DNA of 64,000 bases from Pomacea canaliculata (taxonomy: Eukaryota; Mollusca; Gastropoda; Architaenioglossa; Ampullariidae): NCBI RefSeq assembly GCF_003073045.1, contig NC_037593.1:11580735-11644734 (forward strand). Reading direction: 5' to 3'. The position numbers and the translations under genes are program-made. The notes under the pieces are model-generated. The model had not been told where the DNA came from and did not search any database. It saw nothing but the letters and a program-made list of their open reading frames with translations. Positions within the stretch are counted from its first letter, which is position 1, and every line of letters begins with the position of its first letter. Shown piece after piece: positions 56,756 to 63,331 of this stretch.

Positions 56756-56865
56756 TATAGCCCTTTTACCTTGTAAAGGCCCTTTGTGGGTTTTACAAGA
56801 GACAGAGGGCGTTAGGCAATGTAGCTGTGGTATAAAGAACGCCGTCACCAACAAACAGAGCCATA

Positions 56866-57128
56866 CATACAGTCAGTGACGTGTCAACTACTTCTATAAA
56901 TACAGTCAGTGACGTGTCAACAACTTCTATAAATACAGTCAGTGACATGTCAACTACTTCTATATATATACAGTCAGTGACGTGTCAGCTACTTCTATAA
57001 ATACAGTCAGTGACATGTCAACTACCTCTATAAATACAGTCAGTGACGTGTCAACTACTTCTATAAATACAGTCAGTGACATGTCAACTACTTCTATAAA
57101 TACAGTCAACGACATGTCAACTACTGTT
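56866..57128. repeat. 33-bp minisatellite, about 8 units
   Basis: Unit of the type CTATAAATACAGTCAGTGAC plus GTGTCAACTACTT, eight copies with few changes, one with an extra TA. It ends 13 bp before the left end of the large element at 57141 and does not resume on the other side. Confidence 0.9.
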
Positions 57129-57140
57129 ATCAAGGCAGCA

Positions 57141-57793
57141 GGCGCCAGTAGTATAGGCATGTTGTTTTCATGCCCCATTTGGGGAGCCGGAAGGGGAGCC
57201 GTGACGTCACAGCCGCCGGAAGTTGCACGGGGGCGGCCATCTTGCCGGAAGTCCCTGTGGGTGCGGCCATCTTGATGAGGACATATCCGTGGCGGCCATC
57301 TTGTCGGCCATCTTGCCGGAAGTCCCTGTGGGTGCTGCCATCTTGATGAGGTCATATCCGTGGCGACCATCTTGTCGACCATCTTGACGGAAGTGGCATG
57401 GAGGTAGCCATCTTGATGAGGTCATATCCGCGGCGGCCATCTTGCCGGAAGTGGCATGGAGGTGACCATCTTGATGAAGTCATATCCGTGGCGGCCATTT
57501 TTTCATACCCCGAGTGATTGTTGTTTTTGTATTTGTGGAAAATGTATTGAAAGAGCCCATTTCGTCAAAGCTTAGAAAAGTATAAACTTTAATAAACTTT
57601 GTCCACCAGTCGCCACGAGGAGGCAGGGCTTTTGTTTGACTGGCAAAAAATGTGTTTGACGCACAAAGAACAAGAAAAACTTTTATCACAGCTTTGAAGA
57701 TATCACAGTCTAAACGGGAGCAGCAGTCTCAAATGTCTAACGGCACGGTAGTCACCCCATCGTCAAGGACCTTTCGCTTGATGTACAGATAGG
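57141..57793. repeat. Left terminal inverted repeat of the PolB element
   Basis: Begins GGCGCCAGTAGTATAGGCAT and matches the reverse complement of 62679-63331 over 653 bp. It includes a TGACGTCA string (57197-57205), a block rich in CCATCTTG and CCGGAAGT strings, and the last 20 or so codons of the polymerase gene. Confidence 0.9.
57230..57505. promoter_or_regulatory. Array of YY1-like and ETS-like sites inside the terminal repeat
   Basis: About ten CCATCTTG strings (reverse CAAGATGG, the YY1 core) alternate with GGAAGT strings (ETS core) and four to five ATATCC strings at roughly 30-60 bp spacing. The same array lies at 62967-63242 in the right repeat. The spacing suggests internal duplication. 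Function is inferred from motif similarity only. Confidence 0.5.
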
Positions 57794-60700
57794 ACAAGGA
57801 GTTGCGGTGTTGTTGGTAGGTAAACATAGATTTACCATCTGTTTTGAAACCGGTGTTGCATCCACCGCTGGCTTGCTGTGTCTGTAAAACCTGTTTGAAA
57901 TGGTTGTGGTCAAGTTGATTTTGGTGTTTGTTTAGACCCTTGGTGCTGAGTTTTTGCGAGTCACCGAAACAAATGTAAGTTTTGCTGCAGAGAGCCACGA
58001 TGCCATCGCCTGTGTACTCTGTTTTAAACAAGCCCGGCGTGCGTTTGTCGTCGCGAGCGCGTTGGAGACAGGCAGGACAGGCAGAGGGGTCCCAGGGTTT
58101 GTGGTTTGTTTTGCTGTGCACAAAGTCTTGGTGATGTTGGTCGCATGCTTGTCCCGGGAACCATTGTGTGTATTCTTGAAAAAACCGTTGTTGCAATTCG
58201 GGACGGACGGCATCTTCGAAGCGAGGTGCCGCCAAAGCCATGTACAGCGAATCCGTGTCCATTTCACACAGCTGAAAGTTGCTGCGGTCTACGTACTTGT
58301 CCACGCAGTCGTAGTAAAACTGAAGCATTCTCAGTTTGGCGTACTGGTAGACGAAATAGCCAATTTGCAAGGGGAGACCCCAGTTGATGTTCTTTTTGGC
58401 CATCTCTACCTCGTACAAGTCTTCCGTCAGTTCCGTCAGCTTTTGAAAGCGACTGTCGTTTATCAGTTTTTCACAGTCAGAGTCACCGACGTAGTAAATG
58501 TCGCAGTGCCTGGCGATGTTGGTGAGCGTCTTGCCGTAAGCACTGTTGCCTAACAGTTTGAACGTTTCGCTCAGAATGTTTTTGGATGGATCGCTGTCTC
58601 CTTGGCGTCGCGCGCTGGTGACCATGTCGCCAAAGGCCTTAAAGCAAGGTTTGGGTTGGTATTCTATCACCAGGTACACGGCAGTGACTATGAGACCATT
58701 TTCAAGATACCATTTCAACAAAGGAGTCGCTAGTAAAACTTTGTTGCCGACATAGCTGCCGATGAGCGTTTTTGTGGAACCGGTCAACAGTTTATATTTT
58801 TCCGCGTACGCTCGCATGAAGGGACCAATGTCGGAGCGCGTGACGTGAATGTTTTTGAAGATGGGCGTCATCTCGCTAAACCGCTCACGCAACGCCTCGG
58901 GGACGTGAAGATCGCACTGCACCAGGCCAAACAGCGTTCCGTCTTTTACGGCGGCTAAAATGTCGTTTTCGGTGGGATATCGTTTGTAACTGTAGGAGGG
59001 GAGCTTTTTGCAGCGTATAACGGTGGAGATTTGGGGGTTGGTCTTTTTTCTTTTTTCCCATTCGCACTCCCACATTTCCTGCACTGCAACACCGACGACG
59101 TTTTGTAAGTACGCGGTGATCTCGCGCGTTTTTTCCCGCAACTCGACGAGTGGCTTTTGGTTAAACGGGTTGATGACGCGACCGCGCGTGAGGGAGCAGT
59201 TTTCGTGTCTGTGAAAAAGACAGCCGTGAAACTGATAGACGGTCTGCGTTTCCGAATGCCACCCATCGACGCGAATTCGCCTTTTTCCTAGCTGCTTTTC
59301 TTTTGAATTAAATTTATGCCGAATGTGAATGTTTTTACAAAACATGACCCACTCTAACCACTCGCGACTCTTTTGACCGTACACGTCTCTTTTTTCCCCC
59401 TTGAAATTATTTTCTTTTTTACGGATGATCGGGTGTTCCGTCGGCATGTTTTGACATAAGGCCCAGAGATACAAGGCATTGGCATCGAAGCCCTCAATGC
59501 TTTGTACGGGTTTGCTGAGGTTGTTGCGAATAAACGTGTGAGATTTTTCGTGATGGCGGTGAAAAATGATGGAGGGACCGCCTGTGATGTTGTCGCGAAG
59601 CAGCGAGTGGATGTCTTTTGTTTTGTTATCGAAAAGAGAAAAGTAGACGTCGGAAGGCAGAGTTTTGAAGAGATAGCGCAGTGTGATGCCGGGAGCCGAG
59701 ATAGCGTCTTTCACCATGTCTACACCGAGAGTAGCGTAGAACGTGATCTGGTTGTCGAGCGCTTGCAGAAAAGGCACAACGTCGAGGTTGTTGTACCACA
59801 TCAGAAAATCTCGCAGCGACGTCATGTTGCGAGTCTCCCAGACCTGTTGACAGTAGGCGTATTGCTCGTCTGTGATGTTGCTCTGTTTGAGTGTCGAATA
59901 AAACGCAGCGTGGGGAGAGAGTTGCTGTTCTTGTAGTGTGTCGAGAGAGGTGACGTGTTCGTAGGGGAAGAAACCTTTTTGCTCTGTGACGTTGTAGGCA
60001 GCCAAGTACTTTGTGTAACTAAATCCCGGCGCGAGAAAGTTGACGACGTCTAGAAATTTCAGCTTTTGGGTGCAAATGCACAAAAATGCGTTGTGACGCT
60101 TCACCACAAACTTGAATGGGTTTTTTGTCTCGTCAACATCGTCATCGTCTGCTTCTTTTTCGCAAAGGACAAACCGGCGAACGAGGTAAGGTTTGATGAC
60201 GTTGATGTCATATTTTCCCGAGTTAAACCCTATGACCGGTAGTTGACGCAAGTAGTCGTCGAATCGGGCTTTGAGGGCGGCGGTGGGAATTTGAATACTA
60301 TCGGGGGAGTTGTTTTGTTGTTGATCGACAGCATCTAGCTCTGTAAGCACGTCACTAAATCGCTCGCATAATAAAAGATAAGACCGGTCCGAAATTTTTT
60401 CTAGGTGATCGACCATGCGATCGATCAAGTGTTGAGAGTCGCCGTCGCTGACGAAACAAACCGGCGATTCAAAATCAGGAACGTTGCTGGCTACCGACAC
60501 GGACAAGGGAACGTGTTGTGCTGTGTACCGCGTGTTGTTGCTGTGGGGTTGGGGAAGGCTAGAGCGATCAAAATAAACTTCAAAATCAAAGGTGGCCCTA
60601 TACGGAAAAACAAACGACGTGTCGACCGAAAACCCGTGCGACTGTAAACTTTCCAGGACGGAGGGTGTACCCTGATAGACCCCGCCTTGATACGTCTCTT

Positions 60701-61928
60701 TTACCTTATCACCCTGACATTTCTTTTCGTGTCGCTCCATCCTCCAATTTTTTTTCCAAAGTTTTCCGCACTTGGGACATTGAAACGCATGCGTGAGCTT
60801 GTCGATGTCGATGATGTGCATAAAATGTTGCTTGTAATGTAAAAGACGGAGAACGTCTGTATACTTGTACGCGCTCCGCTGGAGGGGGACGAGAACGGGA
60901 GGAGACTGACTCTCATCAAACTGAAAAACATCGATATTTACTTTAAATTTATCTTCTAAACTCGGCAGATCTAGCAGGGTCACTCCTGGAAAGTCAGAAA
61001 AAGAAGCAGACGAGGACCATTGGTTGAACAGTTCTCGCGCAGGGATCTGTAACGAATGTACGTTGGCGCCACGGTGTAATGCGAGGGCTCTAAAAAAACA
61101 AAGATTGTCACGGTACGCCTGTCCATGGTGTTGGTCTGTTTGAAGTGTATGCAGGCTTTTGTTATTTTGTATGTATTCGGGTAAAGCATCATCTGTACAA
61201 CAACCGATAGGAAAGTCGGCGATGGGATTGACATAAAAGGAGGTGGACATGATGGCCTCCACCGCCACCTTACTGTCGGGACGTTCGTTTTGGGCGTGCT
61301 CCAACGCGTCGTGGTCTTGAACTTGATTTACAAAGTCCAAAAAATCTTGTTTGTTAGAAATCAGACGGGGGCTTTTTAGTGCTCTGTGGTTGTTGGCAGA
61401 GGCGTGAAAAAACGATAACTCATTTGAAGTTTTATTTTTTAGCAAAAAGGAGTGGGAAAAATTAATTTTAAAACGCTTCTTTTGAGAATCAAAAAGATCC
61501 ACGAGACGTTGTCTCCATAGGGGAGTGGCATTGGGAGCCCAAAAAAACGTAAACACCGACTGATGTTTCCCGTACCGTTTATGTGTTTTGACTGCGCTCC
61601 AGTTTTTGCGATATACTTCTTCGACATCAGGTGGTAACTGTGATAAAAGCTCATCTTCTTCTAACCGACCCTGCGCCTGGGTTTTTTGCTTTTTAGGTGG
61701 TGGAGGCGGAGGAGGAGGAGCCATCAAAGTAGCCGAAGGTGCCACTGGTTGAGGCAGATGATCCTTTTGCACATGGCGGCCAAGATGTTCTTTGCGTGAA
61801 AAGGTTTGAAAACACAAAGAACAAGGAAAGCCTTTTACCTTTTCGTGCATCGCTTTGACATGACGATTTAGGTTCTTGACCGCCGTAAATTTTAAATCGC
61901 ACATACGGCAAATCTGAAAACAAAACAA
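57729..61928 (-). CDS. Protein-primed family B DNA polymerase of the Polinton-like element
   Basis: 1399 codons, uninterrupted. N-terminal C2H2-like zinc fingers (about 8-29 and 36-57) and a proline run (71-78). An OTU-like DNLCFFRAL with a later HYKQHF (273-282, 364-369). A third CxxC-HxxxxC finger (384-404). Exonuclease motifs FDFE (447-450), FNSGKYDIN (568-576) and YNNLDVV (712-718). Polymerase motifs DANALY (814-819), LLGNSAYGKT (1125-1134) and DTDS (1224-1227). Between the first two polymerase motifs lies an inserted RVDGW...TVYQFHGCLFHRHENC segment (886-911) resembling PD-(D/E)XK/Vsr-type nucleases. It copies DNA from a protein primer in this family. The stop lies inside the left terminal repeat. 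I cannot say whether the first methionine is the ATG at 61926-61928 or an upstream one. Confidence 0.85.
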   Translation of the reverse strand: MFCFQICRMCDLKFTAVKNLNRHVKAMHEKVKGFPCSLCFQTFSRKEHLGRHVQKDHLPQPVAPSATLMAPPPPPPPPKKQKTQAQGRLEEDELLSQLPPDVEEVYRKNWSAVKTHKRYGKHQSVFTFFWAPNATPLWRQRLVDLFDSQKKRFKINFSHSFLLKNKTSNELSFFHASANNHRALKSPRLISNKQDFLDFVNQVQDHDALEHAQNERPDSKVAVEAIMSTSFYVNPIADFPIGCCTDDALPEYIQNNKSLHTLQTDQHHGQAYRDNLCFFRALALHRGANVHSLQIPARELFNQWSSSASFSDFPGVTLLDLPSLEDKFKVNIDVFQFDESQSPPVLVPLQRSAYKYTDVLRLLHYKQHFMHIIDIDKLTHAFQCPKCGKLWKKNWRMERHEKKCQGDKVKETYQGGVYQGTPSVLESLQSHGFSVDTSFVFPYRATFDFEVYFDRSSLPQPHSNNTRYTAQHVPLSVSVASNVPDFESPVCFVSDGDSQHLIDRMVDHLEKISDRSYLLLCERFSDVLTELDAVDQQQNNSPDSIQIPTAALKARFDDYLRQLPVIGFNSGKYDINVIKPYLVRRFVLCEKEADDDDVDETKNPFKFVVKRHNAFLCICTQKLKFLDVVNFLAPGFSYTKYLAAYNVTEQKGFFPYEHVTSLDTLQEQQLSPHAAFYSTLKQSNITDEQYAYCQQVWETRNMTSLRDFLMWYNNLDVVPFLQALDNQITFYATLGVDMVKDAISAPGITLRYLFKTLPSDVYFSLFDNKTKDIHSLLRDNITGGPSIIFHRHHEKSHTFIRNNLSKPVQSIEGFDANALYLWALCQNMPTEHPIIRKKENNFKGEKRDVYGQKSREWLEWVMFCKNIHIRHKFNSKEKQLGKRRIRVDGWHSETQTVYQFHGCLFHRHENCSLTRGRVINPFNQKPLVELREKTREITAYLQNVVGVAVQEMWECEWEKRKKTNPQISTVIRCKKLPSYSYKRYPTENDILAAVKDGTLFGLVQCDLHVPEALRERFSEMTPIFKNIHVTRSDIGPFMRAYAEKYKLLTGSTKTLIGSYVGNKVLLATPLLKWYLENGLIVTAVYLVIEYQPKPCFKAFGDMVTSARRQGDSDPSKNILSETFKLLGNSAYGKTLTNIARHCDIYYVGDSDCEKLINDSRFQKLTELTEDLYEVEMAKKNINWGLPLQIGYFVYQYAKLRMLQFYYDCVDKYVDRSNFQLCEMDTDSLYMALAAPRFEDAVRPELQQRFFQEYTQWFPGQACDQHHQDFVHSKTNHKPWDPSACPACLQRARDDKRTPGLFKTEYTGDGIVALCSKTYICFGDSQKLSTKGLNKHQNQLDHNHFKQVLQTQQASGGCNTGFKTDGKSMFTYQQHRNSLSYLYIKRKVLDDGVTTVPLDI

Positions 61929-61934
61929 ACAAAA

Positions 61935-62678
61935 AATCCGTCATGCATACTCATTAAAAAAAAAAAAAATATTTAGAAAAAAAAACACTTAGTCGTTAAC
62001 TTACGATTTCCATGGTTGCTGAGAGAGAGAGAGCGTTGTTAAATAAACGTGCTTTGCTTCTCGAATGAATGAACCGAGATAGTCCAAGGGACGAAAAGGA
62101 TGCTGAAGGCGCGCTGATTGGTGGTTCGCCAAAGGCAGCTTTATATGCGTTGTGATTGACGTGGTAAAAAGCTGAATGACAGATGAGTGCCGGAGGGGAC
62201 ATCATACAGCTCATCACAGTTGATCTTAGTGGCAGTAATTAACGTGTCATCTGGGTAGCATCAGCGGTCAGTAAATATCACTGACCTACATTAATTTTAC
62301 AGAGGTGAACGACCGCTAGTGCCAGCATGGTACCATTCCCCACCCACCCTCAACCACTCCTCGTTTTACACACTGCACAAGTGAGTTGTGAGGACTAGTG
62401 TTGGTTTGGAGTGAGCTTTAAAAAAAAATGGTGGTCCTATATATAAGCAGATATTTGCAACTATGATTAAACAAGACACTGCTCTAAGCAAAATGTTTAG
62501 CAAGTGCTTCAATTATAATCATAGATGACTGTTGCTGAATCTCATTATTTGCTCTTCTACCAGTAACTGTATGCTTATATTACTCTTTGAAAGTTATTTT
62601 TGCACTGCTTTAATGTCGACATTATGTGTGTAGCACCTAAGTGTCGTAATCTTACTTAGGTGCAAAAATAACTTTCTA
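61935..62678. other. Non-coding part of the PolB element
   Basis: No second gene. A-rich at 61955-61988. Two short frames only. It holds the nested palindromes at 62588-62677 and is likely the promoter side of the polymerase gene. Confidence 0.55.
62588..62677. repeat. Nested palindromes beside the right terminal repeat
   Basis: Outer 17-bp arms GAAAGTTATTTTTGCAC (62588-62604) and their exact reverse complement (62661-62677). Inside are a perfect 14-bp palindrome TAATGTCGACATTA (62611-62624) and a 10-bp stem GCACCTAAGT/ACTTAGGTGC (62633-62642, 62654-62663) with an 11-base loop. It ends one base before the right terminal repeat starts. Confidence 0.8.
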
Positions 62679-63331
62679 CCTATCTGTACATCAAGCGAAA
62701 GGTCCTTGACGATGGGGTGACTACCGTGCCGTTAGACATTTGAGACTGCTGCTCCCGTTTAGACTGTGATATCTTCAAAGCTGTGATAAAAGTTTTTCTT
62801 GTTCTTTGTGCGTCAAACACATTTTTTGCCAGTCAAACAAAAGCCCTGCCTCCTCGTGGCGACTGGTGGACAAAGTTTATTAAAGTTTATACTTTTCTAA
62901 GCTTTGACGAAATGGGCTCTTTCAATACATTTTCCACAAATACAAAAACAACAATCACTCGGGGTATGAAAAAATGGCCGCCACGGATATGACTTCATCA
63001 AGATGGTCACCTCCATGCCACTTCCGGCAAGATGGCCGCCGCGGATATGACCTCATCAAGATGGCTACCTCCATGCCACTTCCGTCAAGATGGTCGACAA
63101 GATGGTCGCCACGGATATGACCTCATCAAGATGGCAGCACCCACAGGGACTTCCGGCAAGATGGCCGACAAGATGGCCGCCACGGATATGTCCTCATCAA
63201 GATGGCCGCACCCACAGGGACTTCCGGCAAGATGGCCGCCCCCGTGCAACTTCCGGCGGCTGTGACGTCACGGCTCCCCTTCCGGCTCCCCAAATGGGGC
63301 ATGAAAACAACATGCCTATACTACTGGCGCC
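62679..63331. repeat. Right terminal inverted repeat of the PolB element
   Basis: Reverse complement of 57141-57793. It repeats the last codons of the polymerase gene in the opposite orientation (62688-62744), uncoupled from the rest of that gene. Confidence 0.9.

What the first reader, a model, noticed from the sequence alone, without database searches (positions are those of the whole stretch)
57141..63331. A 6.2-kb self-contained PolB element without capsid or integrase
Long matching terminal repeats enclose only a protein-primed DNA polymerase. Known Polintons are much longer and carry integrase and virion genes. This could be a minimal lineage that replicates through its own polymerase and integrates by other means, possibly the nuclease-like segment inside the polymerase. 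It may alternatively be a reduced passenger of full-length relatives.
Basis: partly seen in the sequence, partly recalled or inferred. Interest (0 to 1): 0.8.

Follow-up and report, generated by a model that had tools for sequence, protein, structure and literature searches.

The report
Collapsed snapback copy of a Polinton
The 6.2-kb polymerase-only element is not an independent minimal transposon but a shrunken member of a family of mirror-image (snapback) copies of a virus-like Polinton that still sits as full-length copies in the same snail genome, a fossil trail of how such elements miscopy their own ends.

Summary
It is not an independent minimal lineage. The same genome (Pomacea canaliculata) holds full-length 13-15-kb Polintons with the same termini, a 97-98% identical polymerase, integrase, protease, ATPase and capsid-like genes. 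Unexpectedly, nine other derivatives (7.9-10.5 kb) are palindromes: the polymerase end joined head-to-head to an inverted copy of itself. Eight of these nine and the window element share one fold-back junction found in none of six full-length copies. So one snapback molecule spread as a unit; the window element is such a palindrome whose second arm collapsed, with 155 nt of host-like DNA at the scar. Two more elements are snapbacks of the opposite, capsid end. All 13 elements tested have exact 6-bp duplications. Best reading: DI-like snapback Polintons, copied by PolB, integrated in trans (inferred).

The parts
57141..57146 (.). left target-site duplication GGCGCC
   Evidence: flush with terminus AGTAGT; equals 63326-63331
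57147..57793 (+). left (polymerase-side) terminal inverted repeat, 647 nt
   Evidence: identical to reverse complement of 62679-63325
57234..57503 (+). about 70-nt tandem repeats with GCGGCCATCTTG inside the TIR
   Evidence: the repeat finder family D2
57729..61913 (-). main exon of the DNA polymerase B gene, uninterrupted (the listed ORF runs to 61928)
   Evidence: ORF; PF03175 E 1.2e-8; exonuclease and polymerase motif strings located
61914..62004 (-). inferred 91-nt intron, GTAAGT ... CAG
   Evidence: both splice patterns found in 9 of 14 loci tested incl. window; splicing itself not tested
62005..62013 (-). inferred first coding exon, ATG GAA ATC
   Evidence: inference
62393..62411 (+). 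segment T, last stretch colinear with full-length copies before the fold-back
   Evidence: present in 5 of 6 full-length copies, where it runs into other sequence
62412..62487 (+). fold-back junction and start of the returning arm; 62422 onward is inverted relative to three full-length copies (C7, C14, C3:38.6M)
   Evidence: junction shared by the window and 8 of 9 palindromes, 0 of 6 full-length copies
62488..62642 (+). 155-nt host-like filler, 98.7% identical to chromosome C1:6967244-6967398
62660..62676 (+). 17-nt inverted copy of part of the filler (of 62589-62605)
62679..63325 (-). collapsed returning arm = right TIR, an inverted copy of the polymerase-side end
63326..63331 (.). right target-site duplication GGCGCC

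Best explanation
The element is a non-autonomous, collapsed snapback (copy-back) derivative of a resident Polinton/Maverick. During replication of the linear parent, synthesis that had started at the polymerase-side end turned round just upstream of the polymerase gene and copied back to the end it had started from. This gave a head-to-head palindrome with the polymerase-side terminus on both sides. That palindrome was replicated and integrated again and again as a unit. In the window copy most of the returning arm was later lost and the gap healed with 155 nt resembling a chromosome-1 locus, leaving 647-nt TIRs. SHOWN: termini, 6-bp duplications, full-length relatives, shared fold-back junction, snapbacks of both ends, unbroken polymerase ORF, purifying selection between polymerases. 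INFERRED: protein priming, fold-back during replication rather than chromosomal repair, integration in trans by relatives' integrase, and the order palindrome then collapse.
For: 13 of 13 elements with both ends read (window, 9 polymerase-end palindromes, 2 capsid-end snapbacks, 1 full-length) have exact 6-bp duplications flush with the terminal motif (12; the 13th, mis-set by one base there); 0 of 156 crossed flank pairs match (with that one end mis-set); outer flanks dissimilar over up to 400 nt in 12 of 12 tested. BLAST maps show the polymerase end at both sides. Fold-back junction in the window and 8 of 9 palindromes, in 0 of 6 full-length copies: 5 carry segment T running into other sequence, the sixth (C1:45.0M) has lost the region; a genome search finds it crossed at those 9 loci only. 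Six loci hold polymerase, capsid-like, integrase and ATPase hits together; the integrase frame is uninterrupted in three of the four best hits, two of them (C3:5.1M, C14:0.53M) in full-length elements. Opposite-end snapbacks: C1:8449528-8459706 (arm about 2.4 kb) and C3:39311557-39323980 (arm about 0.8 kb). Window versus C3 polymerase: 1358 of 1396 residues identical, dN 0.0118, dS 0.0927, ratio 0.127.
Against: No replication intermediate, terminal protein or mobility was observed. Many palindrome arms carry heavy indel noise (171 gap openings in one arm of C7 against 24 in the other), so fine dating is unreliable there. The palindromes could have arisen in a chromosome by repair through the TIRs and been mobilised later. 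The 1.87 kb between the arm and the inner part of the C3:39.31M element is unexplained. The major capsid assignment rests on position and length: no Pfam hit, no PDB sequence hit, unusable AlphaFold model. The window copy clusters with palindromes C4_29, C10_21 and C6_16.77 in two of four gene pieces (support 0.70 and 0.98), not in the other two, while its centre resembles the other palindrome sub-type, so its exact parent is unresolved.
Confidence: 0.76

Rival explanations
1. The inverted copies arose in the chromosome: a break inside an integrated Polinton was repaired by copying the polymerase end through the TIR homology (abortive gap repair), then the product was mobilised by integrase.
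For: The C3 full-length copy offers about 297 nt of TIR homology; junctions of C14pal, C4_29, C10_21 and the window show little homology or filler, as end-joining would give.
Against: It still needs the palindrome to spread as a unit afterwards (one junction at nine sites with nine different duplications), and at least three separate fold-backs from two ends in one family fit a replication habit better.
Confidence: 0.18
2. An independent minimal PolB lineage that integrates without integrase.
For: One unbroken polymerase gene, purifying selection between window and C3 polymerases, perfect TIRs, no other gene.
Against: Full-length relatives with same termini and 97-98% identical polymerase; 6-bp duplications like the full-length copy; the right TIR contains the end of the polymerase gene.
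Confidence: 0.03
3. The palindromes are assembly artefacts (missed-adapter PacBio reads or false joins) and the window element is an ordinary internal deletion.
For: The assembly is smartdenovo plus Pilon from PacBio reads (passages of PMC6129957), and one arm is often noisy.
Against: Artefact joins would not give matching 6-bp duplications with dissimilar outer flanks, nor one junction sequence at nine loci including the window copy.
Confidence: 0.03

Closest known systems
Polinton/Maverick elements (polintoviruses)
   Same: Polymerase B, 6-bp duplications and (AGT)2...(ACT)2 ends as in vertebrate Mavericks (passages of PMC8097293); the C3 full-length copy carries integrase with chromodomain, adenain-like protease, ATPase-like and capsid-like ORFs.
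   Different: The window element has the polymerase only, both ends come from one side of the parent, and it is 6.2 kb instead of 13-15 kb.
Snapback defective genomes of adeno-associated virus
   Same: Symmetric and asymmetric self-complementary genomes from either the left (rep) or the right (cap) end (abstract and passages of PMC8235507): the same two-ended pattern.
   Different: AAV is a parvovirus without protein-primed PolB (recalled); its snapbacks are seen in particles, these are integrated and inherited.
Adenovirus incomplete genomes with duplicated left ends
   Same: Protein-primed linear genome yielding inverted duplications of one end (recalled, not looked up).
   Different: Not integrated by an integrase (recalled).
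Bidnaviruses
   Same: PolB and TIRs derived from Polintons, two segments with conserved terminal structure (passages of PMC4061559).
   Different: Single-stranded parvovirus-like viruses; no palindromes mentioned in the passages seen.
Capsid-less Polintons
   Same: Some Polintons lack capsid, protease and ATPase genes together (passages of PMC4028283).
   Different: Those passages describe concerted gene loss, not fold-back of one end.

Membership tests
Polinton/Maverick, autonomous element | DNA polymerase B | tested here: met
   PF03175 E 1.2e-8; motif strings present
Polinton/Maverick, autonomous element | 6-bp target-site duplication and AGT...ACT ends | tested here: met
   motif described in PMC8097293
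Polinton/Maverick, autonomous element | RVE integrase | tested here: not met
   no ORF for it in the window element; present in six full-length relatives, PF00665 E 5e-14 in C3
Polinton/Maverick, autonomous element | capsid, protease and ATPase genes | tested here: not met
   no ORFs for them in the window element; in the C3 relative protease PF00770 E 2e-6, ATPase-like PF04665 E 1e-4 just under its cutoff, capsid inferred only
Polinton/Maverick, autonomous element | 15-20 kb size (range from PMC4028283) | tested here: not met
   6179 bp; the C3 relative is itself 13605 bp
Snapback/copy-back defective genome | both termini come from the same end of the parent, second one inverted | tested here: met
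Snapback/copy-back defective genome | a full-length parent coexists | tested here: met
Snapback/copy-back defective genome | forms as replicating extrachromosomal DNA | not testable with these tools
   needs DNA from live tissue
Snapback/copy-back defective genome | interferes with the parent | not testable with these tools
   no functional data
Linear PolB plasmid (mitochondrial type) | free linear organellar plasmid | tested here: not met
   chromosomal insertion with duplication; nuclear-type intron pattern (inferred)

The most novel reading that the evidence does not exclude
The snail Polinton is drifting to a split genome: polymerase-only snapbacks and polymerase-less capsid/integrase snapbacks share termini and complement each other, so the family propagates as two partner molecules, a living counterpart of the step that could have produced two-segment bidnaviruses.
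Probability: 0.07. Interest if true: 0.85.

Novelty: new variant of a known kind. Interest (0 to 1): 0.6.

Why it matters
To my knowledge Polinton replication has been inferred from sequence, not watched (recalled). Inherited snapback copies of both ends, each with the family's 6-bp duplications, are a fossil record of replication errors of a linear genome, like the snapback genomes of AAV. They show that derivatives without an integrase gene still integrate, presumably in trans, and that defective forms can outnumber the parent in a genome (12 derivatives against 6 full-length loci found here, both lower bounds from capped searches). The junction sequences give exact markers for testing this in other snails.

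Tried and rejected
IMG/VR scan with the polymerase: nothing, and the query patterns reach close relatives only. Pfam PF03175 search of the whole genome: nothing rang, not even in the controls, so uninformative. Capsid-like protein: no Pfam hit, no PDB sequence hit, AlphaFold pLDDT 31, unusable. A PolB tree with virophages and linear plasmids was not built, since full-length relatives with 97-98% identity settle the placement. Other molluscs: this genome has no relatives held (note). Considered and rejected: assembly artefact; independent lineage. Literature: ten searches. Polinton with 'palindrom', integrase and terminal inverted repeat, Polinton with 'defective interfering', Maverick with 'palindrom' and virophage, and copy-back, snap-back, inverted duplication, head-to-head and internal deletion combinations listed no title or abstract start on palindromic Polintons; one search listed 20 of 45 papers. 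Beyond listings I saw passages only of PMC8097293, PMC4028283, PMC8235507 (with abstract), PMC6129957, PMC12721341 and PMC4061559.
Full report
Observation. The element is at the stated coordinates: 653-nt perfect inverted arms around one 1399-codon ORF that matches DNA_pol_B_2. The outermost GGCGCC on each side is a target-site duplication that happens to be its own reverse complement; most relatives align only from about base 6-7 of the arm. The element proper is 57147-63325, 6179 bp, TIR identical over 647 nt. Its ends AGTAGT...ACTACT match the commonest end motif, and its duplication the 6-bp length, reported for vertebrate Mavericks (passages of PMC8097293).

Host. The assembly has 440,159,624 bases in 24 contigs and contig C6 is 31,531,291 long, exactly the scaffold N50 printed for Pomacea canaliculata (passages of PMC6129957). 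That paper's main text has no occurrence of 'Maverick' or 'Polinton'.

Relatives. The TIR search scored 40 of 69 candidates and returned 49 matches, so counts are lower bounds. The polymerase search (33 of 328 candidates scored), the capsid-like search, the integrase search and the ATPase search coincide at six loci: C3:5.10M, C14:0.53M, C12:0.34M, C1:45.02M, C3:38.61M and C7:1.64-1.66M. Both TIR ends were seen for the first three. Only C3:5.10M was read end to end (in two pieces): its polymerase matches residues 72-1399 of the window's at 98% (1358 of 1396 over the longer alignment), with integrase plus chromodomain, adenain-type protease, an ATPase-like protein resembling Pox_A32 just under its cutoff, and capsid-like ORFs. 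Its duplication is TACCAG. The other five were not tested for duplications.

Palindromes. Nine other elements carry the polymerase end on both sides in inverted orientation: six near-symmetric ones of 10.3-10.5 kb (C5, C9, C6 twice, C7, C10:3.8M) and three shorter ones with unequal or lost central parts (C14:13.69M, C4:29.5M, C10:21.1M). Two more are fold-backs of the opposite end: C1:8.45M (arm about 2.4 kb) and C3:39.31M (arm about 0.8 kb), with integrase and capsid-like hits but no polymerase hit in the capped list. The 13 elements with both ends read each have an exact 6-bp duplication: 12, and C3:39.31M (GACGTG) after I corrected an end that I had set one base off. Three BLAST-derived right ends had been shifted by 1-3 bases to the terminal motif between (C5, C1, C10:3.8M). 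Crossed pairs matched 0 of 156. Outer flanks were dissimilar in 12 of 12. This speaks against false joins as the general cause.

One founder. In full-length copies the sequence upstream of the polymerase gene runs through segment T (window 62393-62411) into other sequence: so in C3, C12, C7, C14 and C3:38.6M; the sixth, C1:45.0M, has lost the region. In the window and in 8 of 9 palindromes T runs instead into an inverted segment (62412-62487); the ninth (C14:13.69M) lost its centre. None of six full-length copies has this join. A genome search with 62370-62480 finds it crossed at exactly those nine loci. In three full-length copies (C7, C14, C3:38.6M) the same segment lies in the opposite orientation, upstream of or around T, twice in the last two. 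By eye, T ends in TTTGGAG and CTCCAAA lies about 35 nt downstream in the C7 copy (sequence printed), a plausible fold-back microhomology; this is inference. Hence one snapback molecule was most likely amplified at many sites. Two sub-types of centre exist, and the cleanest arms of different loci differ by as little as 0.15% in substitutions, so part of the spread was recent.

The window copy. After the fold-back it reads 155 nt that are 98.7% identical to C1:6967244-6967398, the only other place found for them (that search skips very common words), then some unassigned bases and a 17-nt inverted piece of that filler, then the last 647 nt of the returning arm. So it is most simply a palindrome whose returning arm collapsed to its tip. 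Three palindromes also lost their centre or part of an arm at other points, which fits the known instability of long palindromes (general knowledge). Its nearest palindromes differ between gene pieces, so its exact parent is open.

Polymerase. Window and C3 polymerases: 1358 of 1396 aligned residues identical, dN 0.0118, dS 0.0927, ratio 0.127 by a Nei-Gojobori count. Selection acted between these lineages; it does not prove that the window copy works. Motif strings for exonuclease and polymerase sites are present (motif meaning recalled). The frame may start by splicing ATGGAAATC to ATTTGC across 91 nt. Both splice patterns were found in 9 of 14 loci tested; in four full-length copies (C14, C1:45, C3:38.6M, C7) only the 5' pattern was found, and in one palindrome piece neither. 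No transcript was examined. Noise in many palindrome arms is best explained by weak polishing of a PacBio assembly in repeats (assembly method), so I did not date arms.

Mechanism. A linear genome copied from its ends by strand displacement can turn round and copy back to the end where it began, giving molecules with one end duplicated. AAV populations contain just such symmetric and asymmetric snapbacks from either end (abstract and passages of PMC8235507). Polymerase-end forms here could supply their own polymerase if it is intact; no integrase hit lies in any of the ten, yet all ten carry the 6-bp duplications, so integration in trans by full-length relatives is the simplest reading. Chromosomal gap repair through the TIRs is the main rival for the first step only.

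Verdict. No listing in my literature searches describes palindromic or snapback Polintons, though subscription papers and Repbase entries are not covered.

Noticed in passing
window 56830-57135: A 33-nt minisatellite (about 8 copies in register, GTCAGTGACGTGTCAAC type) ends shortly before the insertion site.
   Followed up: no
L057 1363-3236 (C3:39312362-39314235): 1.87 kb between the short arm and the inner part of a capsid-end snapback shows no polymerase and only 45 nt of similarity to the full-length C3 copy; origin unknown.
   Followed up: partly
C7:318731-330482: Terminal-repeat, ATPase and integrase hits spread over 12 kb in an order unlike a full-length element; possibly nested or rearranged copies.
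   Followed up: no
L044 594-731 and 8552-8689, L045 599-736, L046 4866-5003: Palindromes C4:29.5M and C10:21.1M share a terminal-repeat variant only 74% like the window's over the outer 160 nt, although their polymerase arms are about 96-97% identical: ends and body evolve separately.
   Followed up: no
L059 724-1087, L061 751-1118: Full-length copies C14:0.53M and C3:38.6M carry the segment upstream of the polymerase gene twice in tandem, a possible source of the two palindrome centre types.
   Followed up: partly
window 57729-61928: The polymerase carries an N-terminal C2H2 zinc finger (PF00096 E 2.4e-5, 25.0 bits against a cutoff of 25.2) and a stretch DNLCFFRALALHRG that recalls OTU-type proteases (recalled, untested).
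   Followed up: no
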